Assembly: GCF_021233415.1 (NCBI RefSeq)
Contig: NZ_CP089466.1
Span: forward strand, 434,001 to 498,000
DNA length: 64,000 nucleotides
Origin: Halobacterium litoreum
GTDB lineage: Archaea; Halobacteriota; Halobacteria; Halobacteriales; Halobacteriaceae
Reading direction: 5' to 3'
In this document: positions 2,324 through 58,339 of the stretch, one piece after another
Layout of the letters: each line of letters begins with the position of its first letter
How positions within the stretch are numbered: the stretch's first letter is position 1
Program-made: the position numbers and the translations under genes
Notes under the pieces: model-generated
What the model saw: only the letters and a program-made list of their open reading frames with translations
Told to the model about the DNA's origin: nothing
Databases searched by the model: none

Positions 2324-3739
2324 ATGGACGAGTTCGACTTCCTCGTCGTCGGCTCCGGCTCAGGACTGACCGTCGCGAACGCCGCCGCGAACCGCGGCCA
2401 GTCGGTCGCCGTCGTTGAGAAGGGGCGACTCGGCGGCACCTGCCTGAATCGCGGCTGTATCCCGTCGAAGATGCTCCTCTACCGCGCGCACGTCCTCGAA
2501 ACCGTCGAGCGCGCGGGCGACTTCCACGTCGACGCCGAGGTTCGGGGCGTCGACTTCGAGACCATCGTGCGCGAGGTCAACGACGAGGTCCACGGCGAAG
2601 CCGACGGCATCCGGCGCGGCCTCCGCTCGTCGGACCGCCACCGCCTCTACGAGGGCGAAGCGCGGTTCGTCGGCGAGCGCGAACTCGCGGTCGTGGACGG
2701 CCCCGACGAGGGCGCGCACCTGCGGGCCGACACCGTCCTGATAGCGTCGGGGACCCGGCCCGCGATTCCGACCGTCGACGGCATCGAGGACGTGGACTAC
2801 CTCACGAGCACCGAGGCGCTCCAGCTGACGGCGCCGCCCGACCGCCTCGTCGTCGTGGGCGGCGGCTACATCGCCGCCGAACTCGGGCACTTCTTCGGGA
2901 CGTTCGGGAGCGACGTGACAATCGTCGGGCGGCGCCCTCACCTCCTCCCCGAAGCCGACCGCGAAGTCGGCGAGGCGTTCACGGAGCGCTACGCCGACCG
3001 CTTCGACGTCCACGCCGGCCACGCCGCCACCGCCGTCTCAGAGGCTGACGGCGAGGTGACAGTCGAAGCGCGGCCCTACGAGTACGGCGAGGGCGTCGAC
3101 GAGACCGCGGACCCGGTGACGGCGACCGGGGACGCCCTCCTCGTCGCCGCCGGCAGACGCCCGAACACGGACACCCTCGACGTGGCGGCGGCGGGCGTCG
3201 AGACGGACGACGAGGGGTTCGTGGAGACGGACGACCACCTCCGCACCACCGCGGACGGCGTCTGGGCGCTCGGCGACGTGGTCGGCGAGTACCTCCTCAA
3301 GCACAGCGCGAACCACGAGGCCCGCGCCGTCGTCCGCAATCTGTTCGGCGACCCCGCGCCCGTCGACTACACCGCGATGCCCTTTGCCGTCTTCGCGTCC
3401 CCCGAAGTCGCCGGCGTCGGCGCGCGCGAACAGGACCTCGACGGGCGCGAGTACGCCACGAACACGTACCGATTCGAGGACACCGCGCGCGGGAACGCGA
3501 TGCAGACCGAGGGGTTCGTGAAGGCCATCGTCGCGCCGGACGGCGAGATTCTCGGCTGTCACGTTCTCGGTCCGGGCGCCTCGACGCTAATCGAGGAAGT
3601 CGTCGTCGCGATGAAAGCCGGGTCGGGGACGGTGCGTGACCTCCGCGAGTCGGTTCACGTCCACCCCGCGCTCTCGGAAGTCGTCCAGCGCGCGTTCGCG
3701 GGGCCGTTCGCGCACGGCGACGGCCACCGTCACGCGTGA
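2324..3739 (+). CDS. FAD/NAD(P)-dependent pyridine nucleotide-disulfide oxidoreductase (mycothione/dihydrolipoamide reductase type)
   Basis: The product has 471 residues, the normal size for class I flavin disulfide reductases. An N-terminal FAD dinucleotide fold (VVGSGSG) is followed by the redox pair GGTCLNRGCIPSK near residue 40, a second NAD(P) fold (VVVGGGYIAAELG), the FAD-binding ALGDV motif, and a C-terminal dimer domain with the catalytic HPALSE His-Glu pair. The first 100 residues resemble mycothione reductase more than E3 of 2-oxoacid dehydrogenases. No 2-oxoacid dehydrogenase genes are adjacent, so a low-molecular-weight disulfide is a plausible substrate; this is inference. ATG 2324 follows GGC directly and is the first residue of the conserved domain. 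Confidence 0.9.
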   Translation: MDEFDFLVVGSGSGLTVANAAANRGQSVAVVEKGRLGGTCLNRGCIPSKMLLYRAHVLETVERAGDFHVDAEVRGVDFETIVREVNDEVHGEADGIRRGLRSSDRHRLYEGEARFVGERELAVVDGPDEGAHLRADTVLIASGTRPAIPTVDGIEDVDYLTSTEALQLTAPPDRLVVVGGGYIAAELGHFFGTFGSDVTIVGRRPHLLPEADREVGEAFTERYADRFDVHAGHAATAVSEADGEVTVEARPYEYGEGVDETADPVTATGDALLVAAGRRPNTDTLDVAAAGVETDDEGFVETDDHLRTTADGVWALGDVVGEYLLKHSANHEARAVVRNLFGDPAPVDYTAMPFAVFASPEVAGVGAREQDLDGREYATNTYRFEDTARGNAMQTEGFVKAIVAPDGEILGCHVLGPGASTLIEEVVVAMKAGSGTVRDLRESVHVHPALSEVVQRAFAGPFAHGDGHRHA

Positions 3740-7415: not shown

Positions 7416-7542
7416 GCGAGAACGTCGGGCGCGAACGGGAAAAACGGCTTCGGTTGGCGGAAACGCCGGCGTTCGGGATTTGTCAATCTCCGCCTGGTCG
7501 TCCCTCCGTCCGACTGTAACTGATTGGTCGGCCGGCAGGCGG

Positions 7543-7656
7543 GTGGACAGAAAGGGGCGAGGCTGTGGACGACGGCGGGCGACGCAAGCACTGGAACGAG
7601 CGAAGCGAGTGAAGGGCGCAGCGAGCCCTCCGAGTCCACAACCTCGGGGCTTTCGG
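7543..7656 (+). repeat. Dispersed hairpin repeat, copy A
   Basis: This is the main content of the gene-free stretch 7416-7718. The left border GGACAGAAAGGGGC and right border GGGGCTTTCGGG enclose a stem (7559-7570 with 7634-7645; one mismatch in 12) and the conserved inner words GACGCAAGCAC and CGAAGCGAG. It is nearly the same sequence as copy B (28222-28340, opposite strand). Copies C and D share the borders but have different stems that still pair. It could be a structured RNA or a miniature mobile element. Confidence 0.75.
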
Positions 7657-7718
7657 GCCGTTGCCGTCGGTAACGACGGATACCGTGGAAAGGAGGAAAA
7701 ACCCCGGACTGTGCCCCG

Positions 7719-27408: not shown

Positions 27409-28179
27409 ATGAGTTTGCCGGCCATGTCGACCACGTCAGTACGGGGCACGATTCGCGGCCTCGGCACTCGCGCGAACCCCGCGTTCGCCACCGGCATCGT
27501 CGCGCTCCCGCTCGCCGCGCTCGCGTACGTCGCCGCGTTCGGGACCGTCCAACAACACACCTACGTCCACGTCATGGCCGGCATCCTCTGGACCGGCATC
27601 GACCTCTTCATGGCGCTCGTCCTCGGCCCCGTCGTCGGCGGCCTCGACCTCGACGAACGCGCCAGTTTCTTCGAACGCCTCACCCCCAAGACCACCTTCC
27701 TCCTCCCGACGCTCGCGCTCGTCACCATCGCCGGCGGCGTCACCCTCGCGCTCCGCCTCCCCTACCTCTTCGAGCACCCCCACGTCTGGCTCGCCATCCT
27801 CACCGCGCTCTCCCTCGTCCCGTCGCTCGCGCTCGTCGGCTGGCAACTCGACGTCTTAGACGACTGGCGCTGGCAAGCCTGGTTCGGCCTCGCCGTCGCC
27901 GTCAGCGGCGCCTACCTCGCCGCCACCCTCCCCAACTTCGCGTGGACCGAACCCGTCTTCGTCGCCGCCATCCTCGTCGTCGCCGCGCTCTCCGTCCTCG
28001 GCTTCGGCGTCCTCATGCCCGGCGAAATCCGGATGTACCGCGAGATGACCTCCGCGAACCCCGACAAACAACTCATCGCCGACATCGGCATGCGCAACGC
28101 CAAACTCGGCGGCGTCCAAGGCGCCCTCCAGTTGGTCGTCGTCGCCACCATGGTCTACATTCGCTACGGCGGCTTCTAG
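27409..28179 (+). CDS. Seven-helix membrane protein of unknown function
   Basis: The product has 256 residues, with hydrophobic helices at about 28-46, 52-75, 93-115, 122-142, 150-170, 180-205 and 230-252. Notable features are a His-rich loop (QQHTYVHVMAGILWTGIDLF) in helix 2, similar to copper-resistance D/haem-binding-like membrane proteins, and RLTPKTTFLLPTLALVTIAGG. It resembles the DUF2269/CopD-like group, but I am not certain. ATG 27409 closely follows an A/T-rich promoter. It is divergent from leuA. Confidence 0.75.
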   Translation: MSLPAMSTTSVRGTIRGLGTRANPAFATGIVALPLAALAYVAAFGTVQQHTYVHVMAGILWTGIDLFMALVLGPVVGGLDLDERASFFERLTPKTTFLLPTLALVTIAGGVTLALRLPYLFEHPHVWLAILTALSLVPSLALVGWQLDVLDDWRWQAWFGLAVAVSGAYLAATLPNFAWTEPVFVAAILVVAALSVLGFGVLMPGEIRMYREMTSANPDKQLIADIGMRNAKLGGVQGALQLVVVATMVYIRYGGF

Positions 28180-28221: not shown

Positions 28222-28340
28222 CCTCGAAAGCCCCGAGGCTGTGGGCTTGGGGGACTTGCTGCGCGCTTCCCTCGCTTCGCTCGGTTCAGTGCTTGCGTCG
28301 TCCGCCGTCGCCCACAGCCTCGCCCCTTTCAGTCCCACCC
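28222..28340 (-). repeat. Dispersed hairpin repeat, copy B
   Basis: Read on the minus strand it begins GGTGGGACTGAAAGGGGC and ends GGGGCTTTCGAGGA. The stem GAGGCTGTGGGC (28235-28246) pairs perfectly over 12 bp with 28310-28321. Compared with copy A, an A-U pair has become G-C with both sides changed. The inner words GACGCAAGCACTGAACCGAG and CGAAGCGAG are shared with A. The element takes up the middle of the 259-base gap between a membrane protein and pdxS. The flank 28341-28438 contains no gene. Confidence 0.78.
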
Positions 28341-28438
28341 CGTCGGTTGGCCGGGTGCTGTAGCCGTCGGCTGGTCGGAGTGCTGTCGCTGTCGGCTGTC
28401 GAGGATAGAAACGAGAGAATCGAGTGTCGGCTAGCCGG

Positions 28439-37197: not shown

Positions 37198-38469
37198 ATG
37201 GAGGACACCGCGAAGTACCTGATTCACGCCGACCTCGTCGCCGACGGTATCGTGGAGCGAAGCGACGTCGTCGGGGCGGCGTTCGGGCAGACCGAGGGGT
37301 TGCTCGGGGACGACCTCGACATCCGCGACCTGCAGGACTCCGCGAAACTCGGCCGCATCGACGTCTCCGTCGATAGCGAGGGCGGCCAGTCCTTCGGTCA
37401 CATCACCATCGCGTCCAGTCTCGACCGCGTGGAGACGGCGACGCTCGCGGCCGCACTGGAGGCCGTCGAGCGCATCGGGCCGTGTCGCGCGCAGGTCGAA
37501 GTCAACCGCATCGAGGACGTGCGCGCGGCCAAGCGCCGCGAGGTCGTCGACCGCGCGAAGGAACTGCTCGCGAACGCCTTCGACGAGGGCGCCATCGACT
37601 CCGACGACATCCTCCGGGAGGTCCGGGAGAGCGTGCGCGTCGAGGACATCACCGACTACGAGGGCTACCCCGCCGGGCCGAACGTCGCGTCCAGCGACGC
37701 CGTCGTGGTCGTCGAGGGGCGGGCCGACGTGGTGACGCTTCTCGGCTACGGCATCAAGAACGCCGTCGCCGTCGAGGGGACGAACGTCCCGGAGGAAATC
37801 GCGGCGCTCACGAACGAACGCACGACGACGGCGTTCCTCGACGGCGACCGCGGCGGCGACCTCATCCGCCGGGAACTCGAACAGGTCGGGGACGTGGACT
37901 ACGTCGCTCGCGCGCCCGCCGGCGAGTCAGTCGAAGACCTCTCCCGGCAGGCCGTCGACACCGCGCTCCGCGAGAAGCAGCCGGTCGGGGACGCCGAGGA
38001 CGCCGCGGGCGCGAACGTCGACGCCGCACTCGGCGCCGAGGAAGACGAGGCGACCGCGGCGACGGACGGGAGCGCGACCCCGGCGCCCGCCGCGACCGAC
38101 GCCGAGTCGCCGAGCGAACCGAGCGTCGAGGATTCGGCGACCGAGGCGGACGACGCGGCGGCCGAACCCGCCGACGAGGCGGTGCCGAAGACGCTCGCCG
38201 ACCACGTCGACGAGGTCGTCGGCGCCGGGACGGTGCGTCTGCTCGGGGACGACCTCGACGCCGTCTGCGAGTCGCCGGCCGGCGACGCCTTCGACGCGCT
38301 CGAAAGCGCGGACACGGCGCCGAACGTGGTGGTCGTGGACGGCACCGTCACCCAGAAACTACTCGACTTGGCGGCTCAGCGCGGCGTCGGCACGGTCGTC
38401 GGCGCCGACACCGGCGAGTTCGTGAAACAGCCGGCGAGCGTGCGCGTTCACGACGCGACCGCCTACTGA
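37198..38469 (+). CDS. dnaG: Archaeal DnaG-type primase
   Basis: The product has 423 residues. The N-terminus MEDTAKYLIHADLVADGIVE is the archaeal DnaG domain; the TOPRIM domain has DAVVVVEGRADVVTLL with its Glu and then FLDGDRGGDL with the DxD pair. An Ala/Glu/Asp-rich low-complexity linker (about 265-330) separates a C-terminal domain. Archaeal DnaG binds the exosome and can make primers; which role dominates here cannot be told. ATG 37198-37200. Confidence 0.96.
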   Translation: MEDTAKYLIHADLVADGIVERSDVVGAAFGQTEGLLGDDLDIRDLQDSAKLGRIDVSVDSEGGQSFGHITIASSLDRVETATLAAALEAVERIGPCRAQVEVNRIEDVRAAKRREVVDRAKELLANAFDEGAIDSDDILREVRESVRVEDITDYEGYPAGPNVASSDAVVVVEGRADVVTLLGYGIKNAVAVEGTNVPEEIAALTNERTTTAFLDGDRGGDLIRRELEQVGDVDYVARAPAGESVEDLSRQAVDTALREKQPVGDAEDAAGANVDAALGAEEDEATAATDGSATPAPAATDAESPSEPSVEDSATEADDAAAEPADEAVPKTLADHVDEVVGAGTVRLLGDDLDAVCESPAGDAFDALESADTAPNVVVVDGTVTQKLLDLAAQRGVGTVVGADTGEFVKQPASVRVHDATAY

Positions 38470-38531
38470 TTAGGGTGTGGTTTTCTCGGACAGGTACTGT
38501 TGGAGTTCTAAAACAGCGTTTTGGATACCAT

Positions 38532-38648
38532 CTCGAAATCCCCTGCTCGCTCGCGGTCGCTCGCTGGCATATCGCTCACTCCGTTCTCGATAGCGGCCAC
38601 CGAGACGACCACGACGAACGCGAGCGAGCAGCCCCTTTCAATCCCACC
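38532..38648 (-). repeat. Dispersed hairpin repeat, copy D
   Basis: Read on the minus strand it begins GGGATTGAAAGGGGC and ends GGGGATTTCGAGA. The stem TGCTCGCTCGCG (38544-38555) pairs perfectly over 12 bp with CGCGAGCGAGCA (38619-38630). The stem sequence is unrelated to those of A, B and C, yet the border words are nearly the same. The loop has GGAGTGAGCGAT instead of CGAAGCGAG. It is head-to-head with copy C. Confidence 0.72.
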
Positions 38649-38677
38649 CTCGACCGGTTGGTCAGCCGGTATTGGAC

Positions 38678-38787
38678 GGGACTGAAAGGGGCGGTCGGCT
38701 CGGTGAACCTCGGCGACGCAAGGACCGCAGGCTGGAGGCCGAGGACCGAAGCGAGCCGCGGGAGCCGAGCCGACCGGGGCTTTCGAG
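38678..38787 (+). repeat. Dispersed hairpin repeat, copy C
   Basis: The borders are GGGACTGAAAGGGGC (38678-38692) and GGGGCTTTCGAG (38776-38787). The stem GGTCGGCTCGG (38693-38703) pairs perfectly with 38765-38775. An inner stem CCTCGG/CCGAGG brackets GACGCAAG (38715-38722), followed by CGAAGCGAG. Together C and D fill most of the 357-base gap between dnaG and the DUF92 gene; there is no gene there. Confidence 0.75.
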
Positions 38788-38826
38788 GTGGAACTAACAC
38801 CGACGACGTCCTCCGAACCGGCCACT

Positions 38827-40149
38827 TCAAACGAGACCGACCGCGAGCGCCAGCAGGCCGCCGGCGACGCCGCCGGTGAGCGTCGCGAGGAAGTTCACGC
38901 CCTGATTCCCGACGATGCCGCCCTCGACGGTGGCGCCGGCGAGGCTGTCGGCGGTCATGCCCGCGATACCGGCGAGGACGACGACGCCCGTCGCCGCCGC
39001 GCCGAAGTCGAAGACGGCGACGCAGAGTCCCGCGATGACGGCGGCGCCCGCGACGCCCGCGAGTTCGCCCTGCCACGTCACCGCGCCGTCGGTGCCGGGT
39101 TCGACGCGCTCGAAGGTCGTGACCAGCCGCGGGTCGTCGAAGAGGCCGCCGACCTCCGAGGACAGCGTGTCCGCGAGCGCGGTGGCGATGCTGCCGGCGT
39201 AGGCGAACTGGTAGGCCGTGTCCGACAGCGGTACGTGGGCGTGGGCGGCGTACAACAGGAGCGCGAACAGCGCCGCGGCGGAGTTCCCGAGGACGTTTCC
39301 GGTGCCGCGAGCGCCCTCGTTGGGCTCCGCGACGCCGCGTTCGAGTTTCTGGTCGTACCGGAACTTCGTCGTCAGACTCCCCACCGCGAAGAACGCGATG
39401 AGCAACACGAACCAGCCGTAGCCGCCGAGTACGACGGCGAGCAGACCGAGGAAGACGCCCGTGAGCATCCCCGCGACCGAGGTCGCGCCGAGCGCGTGGG
39501 AGGCGTAGCCGAACGCGGCGGTGACGCCGAGCGCCACCAGCACGCGCTCCCACGCGGTCGCCGGCGGAACGGCGTCGAGGGGCGCGAGCACGGCGAACAG
39601 CCACAGCAGGAGCGCGACCGTCACCAAGACGACGGGGTCGTCGCGAACGGAGAAGAACGTCCGCAGGATGCCCGCGAGCAGCGCCGCGCTCGACGCGATG
39701 AACACCCAGTGGGGGTAGTTCGCGGTCGCGTCGGTGAGCGCGGCGACGACTGCCTGGCCGGCGAGCGCGGCGAGCGCGCCGAGCACGACGAAGCCGACCA
39801 TCGAGAGCGCCCGGTGTTCCCGGTACTGGAGCACGAGACGGCGCCCGAGGTCGCCGTACCCGACGACGAGCACGCTCGCGACGAACACGCCGACCGGCAC
39901 GTCGAATATCGGGACGAGCAGGCCGACGCCGGTCGCGGCGAGCGCGAACGACACGAGCGTCCGCAGGCGCTCGTCGCGTCGGTCGCGGGCCGTCGAGAAC
40001 ACCTCGAACAGCCAGCCGTCGGTTATCGTCGCGCCGAGGACGGCGACCACGGCGAACGGCACCGCGGCTGCGCGGCCCAACAGCGGTGCCGACAGCGACA
40101 GCGTCGCCACGAGCGCGAACGCCGCGGCGCGCCGCAGACTCCAGTTCAC
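38827..40149 (-). CDS. DUF92-family membrane protein (prenyl-phosphate kinase-like), two-part
   Basis: The product has 440 residues and about 12 hydrophobic helices. The C-terminal half (about 200-440) is the DUF92/TMEM19 domain: HALGATSVAGMLTGVFLG, KFRYDQKLERGVAE, GTGNVLGNSAAALFALL, ATALADTLSSEVGGL and DSLAGATVEGG. Plant VTE6 of this family phosphorylates phytyl phosphate. The N-terminal half resembles dolichol/phytol-kinase-like membrane proteins. Its divergent neighbour is a cis-prenyltransferase homologue, which suggests polyprenol phosphate metabolism; this is inference. Confidence 0.82.
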   Translation of the reverse strand: MNWSLRRAAAFALVATLSLSAPLLGRAAAVPFAVVAVLGATITDGWLFEVFSTARDRRDERLRTLVSFALAATGVGLLVPIFDVPVGVFVASVLVVGYGDLGRRLVLQYREHRALSMVGFVVLGALAALAGQAVVAALTDATANYPHWVFIASSAALLAGILRTFFSVRDDPVVLVTVALLLWLFAVLAPLDAVPPATAWERVLVALGVTAAFGYASHALGATSVAGMLTGVFLGLLAVVLGGYGWFVLLIAFFAVGSLTTKFRYDQKLERGVAEPNEGARGTGNVLGNSAAALFALLLYAAHAHVPLSDTAYQFAYAGSIATALADTLSSEVGGLFDDPRLVTTFERVEPGTDGAVTWQGELAGVAGAAVIAGLCVAVFDFGAAATGVVVLAGIAGMTADSLAGATVEGGIVGNQGVNFLATLTGGVAGGLLALAVGLV

Positions 40150-58226: not shown

Positions 58227-58324
58227 CCGCCAGCGTCTTCTCGCCCCGCCGACTACGTCCGCGTGGCCGATGACGACGCCACCGGGCCGACCCGGGGTGG
58301 CTCCCGCGGGACGACGAGCCCTAT

Positions 58325-58339
58325 GAGTACCGAGGCCGA
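58325..58339. repeat. 15-bp direct repeat, left end of the low-GC segment
   Basis: GAGTACCGAGGCCGA is identical to 59378-59392. The flanking bases differ at both copies, so the match is exactly 15 bp. The gap 58227-58449 also contains the TATATTATGG box (58411-58420) of the 58450 gene. Confidence 0.65.

What the first reader, a model, noticed from the sequence alone, without database searches (positions are those of the whole stretch)
7543..7656. Four-copy hairpin element with constant borders and a covarying stem
Copies at 7543-7656 (+), 28222-28340 (-), 38678-38787 (+) and 38532-38648 (-) all lie between genes. All begin with a GA(C/T)TGAAAGGGGC-like word and end with GGGG(C/A)TTTCG. Just inside the borders is a stem of 11-12 bp. 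It is perfect in three copies and has one mismatch in A. The stem sequence differs between A/B, C and D, while pairing is kept; A and B differ by a compensatory pair (A-U to G-C). A, B and C share the words GACGCAAG and CGAAGCGAG inside. Conservation of pairing over sequence points to RNA or single-stranded DNA structure rather than simple duplication. I do not know a named family for it.
Basis: seen in the sequence. Interest (0 to 1): 0.75.

Follow-up and report, generated by a model that had tools for sequence, protein, structure and literature searches.

The report
Haloarchaeal swappable-stem intergenic hairpin repeats
The four "copies" belong to an uncatalogued family of about 105-base hairpins scattered between genes across haloarchaea (about 40 in this genome), whose ends stay constant while the paired stem is repeatedly replaced, so the folded shape rather than the sequence is being kept.

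Summary
The four copies are members of a dispersed intergenic family: 38 model hits in this 2.7 Mb Halobacterium genome, and exact-border copies in 126 of 392 genomes (50 of 95 genera) of the order, with one reversed-pattern control hit. Structure: GAAAG/CTTTC, a constant GGG/GGG internal loop, a 13-bp stem, then a rod with conserved small loops. Among 145 distinct outer stems, pairing is 11.1 of 12 (5.0 shuffled). G-U mismatches exceed A-C, so one strand is selected as a single-stranded fold. About half the copies form head-to-head pairs 42-49 nt apart; C and D are such a pair. Copies A and C/D are insertions absent from all 12 other genomes of the genus. Sites shared between species often carry different hairpins; one clean case shows replacement between conserved flanks. 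The hairpin's 3' end sits 42-65 nt from stop codons here and about 98 nt from start codons elsewhere. No Rfam match; no link to a Y1 transposase or TnpB. Best reading: a REP/BIME-like non-autonomous repeat kept as a single-stranded fold, mobiliser unknown. RNA function is the main rival. Homology to the closest published class, Haloquadratum "small mobile repeats", was not testable.

The parts
7550..7654 (+). copy A, hairpin element, type I internal module
   Evidence: R1 102.6 bits; folds at -51.7 kcal/mol, z -3.9
7520..7549 (+). conserved 5' flank of A (half centre, contains GGTCGGCCGGCAGGCGGGTGGACA)
   Evidence: same kind of flank in most copies
7455..7712 (.). segment holding copy A that is missing from the orthologous gap in 12/12 other genus genomes
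28226..28330 (-). copy B, hairpin element, type I; 3' end 46 nt from the stop of the + gene ending at 28179
   Evidence: R1 98.4 bits; gene call
28331..28360 (-). conserved 5' flank of B (contains CCGGCCAACCGACGGGGTGGGACT)
38535..38639 (-). copy D, hairpin element, type II internal module (CTATC...GATATG); left half of a head-to-head pair; 3' end about 65 nt from the stop at 38469
   Evidence: R1 31.2 bits
38640..38683 (.). 44-nt centre shared by D and C, containing the CCGGTTGGTCAGCCGG palindrome
38684..38784 (+). copy C, hairpin element, type I; right half of the pair; 3' end 42 nt from the stop of the - gene whose 3' end is at 38827
   Evidence: R1 101.3 bits
38471..38831 (.). segment holding the C/D pair, missing from the orthologous gap in 12/12 other genus genomes

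Best explanation
A family of non-autonomous, dispersed intergenic hairpin repeats of haloarchaea, comparable in organisation to bacterial REP/BIME/REPIN elements. The unit is a rod-like hairpin of about 105 nt with constant borders, often set head-to-head as a pair around a 42-49 nt centre. Shown: genome-wide dispersal, presence/absence differences at orthologous sites, strand-specific conservation of the fold, non-random distance to genes, turnover of hairpins at shared sites. Inferred: the single-stranded hairpin (most likely ssDNA exposed during replication or transcription, possibly RNA) is what an unidentified enzyme recognises. The constant borders (GGGTGGGACTGAAAGGGGC and GGGGCTTTCGAGG) act as recognition or crossover sequences, letting one copy's hairpin replace another's by recombination. 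Pairing is kept because unpaired replacements are lost.
For: Dispersal: 31 BLAST places and 38 model hits in the own genome; 126/392 genomes of the order; 43 plasmid records and no phage record. Insertion: A and C/D sites empty in 12/12 congeners, and the pair at L289 empty in four genomes. Exchange: L255 versus L272 has flanks 0.94-0.97 and 0.82-0.97 identical but hairpin 0.57; L274 versus L306 has adjoining flanks 0.91 and 0.85 but hairpin 0.70. Hairpins at 47 orthologous comparisons have median identity 0.70, random pairs 0.68; element and adjoining 50 nt diverge more than other intergenic DNA (0.71 and 0.62 versus 0.80). Fold: 145 distinct stems at 11.1/12 pairs versus 5.0 shuffled, G-U 43 versus A-C 17; inner pair CG 70, TG 17, TA 10, CA 1; covariation score 0.584 versus 0.155, 0/500 shuffles. 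Pairs: 86/168, spacing mostly 42-49. Synteny breakpoints fall at element copies.
Against: No mobilising enzyme identified. Exact ends of the inserted segment not resolved: inserted stretches include about 40-90 nt of non-conserved sequence outside the hairpins, and no clear target duplication was seen. Only four orthologous copies have alignable immediate flanks, so clean replacement is shown in one or two cases; elsewhere the whole gap has turned over. The conserved small internal loops and the spacing to genes suggest a host function that a purely selfish repeat would not need.
Confidence: 0.55

Rival explanations
1. A cis-acting structured RNA or bidirectional boundary element. Transcripts entering the gap fold the hairpin, which blocks read-through or protects mRNA ends. 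The head-to-head pair makes it work from either side.
For: G-U over A-C excess means the + strand fold is selected. Internal loop sequence is conserved across genera. Never overlaps predicted genes in 55 clusters and 117 other copies. 3' end 85-112 nt from start codons in 26/55 versus 5.2 expected; 45-54 nt from stops in the genus. Very stable folds.
Against: No orientation bias relative to transcription in other genera (18 sense, 15 antisense). No T-run terminator. Some congeners lack the element at sites where others have it. One congener (G064) has no model hit at all. Whole hairpins of a different module (I versus II) occupy the same site in different species. No transcript data.
Confidence: 0.3
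2. REPIN-like elements mobilised in trans by an IS200-type (Y1, RAYT-like) transposase that cleaves the single-stranded hairpin.
For: Head-to-head pairs, intergenic location and strand-specific hairpin resemble REP/REPIN (PMC3116915, PMC3733652).
Against: No Y1 transposase in this genome or in five other congeners that carry the element, while G064 has Y1 genes and no model hit. No GTAG/CGTC tag at the hairpin foot; units are about three times longer.
Confidence: 0.08
3. Ends of TnpB/IS605 elements (omega RNA) or PATE remnants.
For: PATEs are common in Haloquadratum and have near-terminal palindromes (PMC3119063).
Against: Single TnpB match in the genome; R1 finds no element in the 3.2 kb around it. 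About 40 copies occur without an IS605 gene beside them in the stretches read.
Confidence: 0.03
4. Plain ectopic gene conversion and slippage among old dispersed repeats, with hairpin pairing maintained by DNA-level palindrome correction, and no function or mobility.
For: Constant GGGGC direct repeats flank the hairpin and a deletion product GAAAGGGGCTTTC is seen in L282. Loop inversions in a few copies. Single copies in two species are identical and vertical. G-U pairs are only about 3% of cells.
Against: Does not explain gain at the A and C/D sites, the G-U/A-C asymmetry, or the spacing to genes.
Confidence: 0.2

Closest known systems
SMR-A small mobile repeats of Haloquadratum walsbyi (HqIRS42/43/55; PMC3119063)
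   Same: Haloarchaeal, about 110 bp, prominent terminal inverted repeats, no transposase gene, many copies, no clear target duplication, unknown mobilisation.
   Different: SMR-A insert into palindromes of PATE/IS605 elements and each type is commonly >95% uniform. This family lies beside host genes and its stems vary freely.
REP / BIME / REPIN elements of bacteria (PMC3116915, PMC3733652)
   Same: Dispersed intergenic hairpins, mostly head-to-head dimers with conserved spacers.
   Different: About 105 nt instead of 20-40, internal loops conserved, no GTAG/CGTC tag, stems differ within one genome, no associated Y1 transposase.
PATE / IS605-type elements
   Same: Haloarchaeal, transposase-free, palindromic, no obvious target duplication.
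   Different: No near-terminal palindromes at the two ends of a longer body; no link to TnpB or Y1.
Structured RNA families in Rfam 15
   Same: Covarying stem with conserved loops.
   Different: No family reaches its threshold; weak hits are unrelated microRNA hairpins over the palindromic centre.

Membership tests
REP/REPIN | dispersed intergenic hairpins, often as inverted pairs | tested here: met
REP/REPIN | GTAG or CGTC tag and 20-40 bp unit | tested here: not met
   borders are GACTGAAAGGGGC/GGGGCTTTCG, unit about 105 nt
REP/REPIN | cognate RAYT/Y1 transposase in the genome | tested here: not met
   none in G000 and five other carriers
PATE/IS605 | near-terminal palindromes shared with an IS605 element | tested here: not met
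   only TnpB locus of this genome has no element
SMR-A | about 110 bp with inverted terminal repeats and no transposase | tested here: met
SMR-A | insertion into PATE/IS605 palindromes | tested here: inconclusive
   the palindromic centre could be read as a target, but no hairpin-free centre was found in the sites examined
SMR-A | sequence homology to HqIRS42/43/55 | not testable with these tools
   SMR sequences are in supplements not open here
MITE | terminal inverted repeats of a known transposon plus target duplication | tested here: inconclusive
   outer ends CCTCGAAAGCCCC/GGGGCTTTCGAGG are inverted in pairs, but no transposon or duplication was found
Rfam family | score above gathering threshold | tested here: not met
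functional cis-acting RNA | transcribed, with an effect on expression | not testable with these tools
   no RNA-seq available

The most novel reading that the evidence does not exclude
A haloarchaea-wide structured RNA class with interchangeable stem cassettes that works from both strands as a boundary between neighbouring transcripts, placed at a set distance from promoters and stop codons, and renewed by replacing hairpins between constant borders.
Probability: 0.25. Interest if true: 0.85.

Novelty: new variant of a known kind. Interest (0 to 1): 0.62.

Why it matters
It is an abundant, sequence-defined element in many haloarchaeal genera, with no Rfam entry, no annotated feature under most of the matched plasmid places, and no description found in the papers searched. 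It combines strong covariation with high turnover, so it separates conservation of shape from conservation of sequence unusually cleanly. It also marks places where gene order breaks between species, gives a ready test for an unknown mobilising enzyme in archaea, and provides a model (R1) for genome annotation.

Tried and rejected
Rfam at gathering and relaxed thresholds: nothing relevant. Y1/RAYT link: weakened by distribution. TnpB link: rejected. Phage carriage: none in two searches. Haloquadratum plasmid PL47 as a source of SMR copies: no R1 hit. Literature search by border sequence: only unrelated papers in the listed results; a REP survey that includes archaea does not mention haloarchaea. 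A CRISPR-repeat resemblance of GGTGGGACTGAAAG was considered from memory and not pursued. A G-quadruplex from the four G runs was considered; no test available. The claim that hairpins are always swapped at shared sites was tried and cut back, because at most sites the adjoining 40 nt is also unalignable.

Full report
OBSERVATION. The four copies are present as described. A covariance model built from 19 type I copies places them at 7550-7654 (+), 28226-28330 (-), 38684-38784 (+) and 38535-38639 (-); A, B and C were part of its seed. The fold common to A, B and C is GAAAG/CTTTC, a GGG/GGG internal loop, 13 paired positions, then a rod of short helices with small loops. A has one C-A mismatch in the stem. 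C and D form one head-to-head pair around a 44-nt centre. D carries a different inner module.

FAMILY. BLAST with copy A finds 31 places in this genome. The exact-border pattern finds 19 copies with no hit for the reversed control, and the model finds 38. In the order, TGAAAGGGGCN{58,88}GGGGCTTTCG occurs in 126 of 392 genomes and 50 of 95 genera, with one control hit overall. Named carriers include Halobacterium, Halomarina, Natronococcus, Halorarius, Haloterrigena, Halobaculum and others. The bacterial records in that scan lack the conserved flank and look like chance matches. 43 plasmid records match, all of the listed ones haloarchaeal by organism name; no phage record matches. In the same family but outside the genus, copies are few, zero to five per genome.

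ANATOMY. 5' flank: consensus CGGGTGGGACT preceded by a CCGGTTGGTCAGCCGG-like palindrome. 3' flank: GAGGTG. 86 of 168 exact-border copies have an inverted partner border upstream, mostly 42-49 nt away. A second border type, GAAAGGGCGAGG...CCGAGGGCTTTC, occurs in this genome. Two inner modules occur: type I (GACGCAAGCAC...GCGCAGCGAG) and type II (CTATC...GATATG). In a few copies the inner part is inverted relative to the borders.

FOLD UNDER SELECTION. Of 170 copies, 145 outer stems are distinct; 11.1 of 12 positions pair, against 5.0 when 3' arms are shuffled. On alignment A2, 97.3% of cells pair, 20 of 31 pairs show changes on both sides, and the covariation score is 0.584 against 0.155 shuffled, never reached in 500 shuffles; slid controls give 0.07-0.09. 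Mismatches are asymmetric. Counting once per stem family, G-U outnumbers A-C 43 to 17 (p = 0.001); one inner pair is CG 70, TG 17, TA 10, CA 1. In double-stranded DNA the two mismatches are equivalent, so this asymmetry means one strand is selected as a single-stranded fold. It does not tell RNA from single-stranded DNA. G-U cells are only about 3%, which is low for an RNA helix by my own knowledge and leaves room for DNA-level correction.

INSERTION AND EXCHANGE. The gaps holding A (7455-7712) and C/D (38471-38831) shrink to short gaps in all 12 other genomes of the genus. Another pair (G107, L289) is absent from four congeners. The missing stretch includes about 40-90 nt of non-conserved sequence on each side of the hairpins, so the true ends of the mobile unit are not known. 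Among five Halobacterium genomes, many orthologous gaps hold an element. Hairpin identity there has a median of 0.70, against 0.68 for random pairs, with 13 of 47 at 0.8 or more against 5%. Only four orthologous copies have alignable immediate flanks. Of these, L255/L272 is a clean replacement (upstream 0.94-0.97, downstream 0.82-0.97, hairpin 0.57), L274/L306 a likely one, and two are conserved. Over 15 locus pairs, identity is 0.88 coding, 0.80 ordinary intergenic, 0.62 in the 50 nt beside the element and 0.71 in the element. In contrast, single copies in two species of another genus are identical at the same place. Gene order breaks at element copies in several comparisons. GGGGC is a direct repeat at both ends of the hairpin, and a hairpin-free GAAAGGGGCTTTC is seen in L282, as expected for deletion between those repeats.

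POSITION. No copy overlaps a predicted gene in 55 Halobacterium clusters or 117 copies elsewhere. In Halobacterium the hairpin's 3' end is a median 47 nt (IQR 45-54) from a stop codon or 98 nt (IQR 93-113) from a start codon; these counts include orthologous sites, so they are not all independent. In other genera 26 of 55 lie 85-112 nt from a start codon, against 5.2 expected by random placement in the same gaps (maximum 14 in 2000 trials). Window copies A, B, C and D lie 64, 46, 42 and 65 nt from stop codons. There is no sense/antisense preference in other genera (18 to 15). The gene calls are my own codon-usage predictions, not curated annotation.

ENZYME. No Y1 transposase occurs in this genome or in five other carriers, while G064 has Y1 genes and no model hit. 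The only TnpB locus carries no element.

VERDICT. A haloarchaeal family of REP/BIME-like repeats, kept as a strand-specific hairpin and renewed by exchange between constant borders, is the best-supported reading; the agent of movement is unknown. A cis-acting RNA role is the chief rival and cannot be excluded. The closest published class is the SMR-A repeats of Haloquadratum (PMC3119063); homology to it could not be tested.

Noticed in passing
L250 about 2985-3075, L257 about 2840-2910, L284 about 2970-3025: A small double hairpin (GGCGGTCGGC..GCCGACCGCC, spacer, GTGGCGGC..GCCGCCAC) sits inside hairpins of the family, like a nested small mobile repeat.
   Followed up: partly
L275 about 3050-3120, L282 about 3205-3270, L293 about 3105-3165: Another double hairpin (GAGCGAACGC..GCGTTCGC and GGAAGACGAACG.AGTGAGTCTTCC) lies beside the border, flanked by a repeated GGGACT in L275 and L282.
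   Followed up: no
L264/L265/L278, L255/L301/L302, L327/L328: Gene-order breakpoints between species coincide with element copies, suggesting recombination between copies rearranges chromosomes.
   Followed up: partly
L327, L328, L330: Two species of another genus share an identical hairpin at one place, but upstream DNA differs from the element border on; L330 has a similar hairpin 2.4 kb from a different one, in opposite orientation.
   Followed up: partly
window 58265-58337: C/D-box guide RNA sR-tMet (Rfam RF02163, 63.9 bits).
   Followed up: no
L022 992-1098: A copy whose 5' border has become GAAAGCCCC, making the border fully palindromic with GGGGCTTTC.
   Followed up: no
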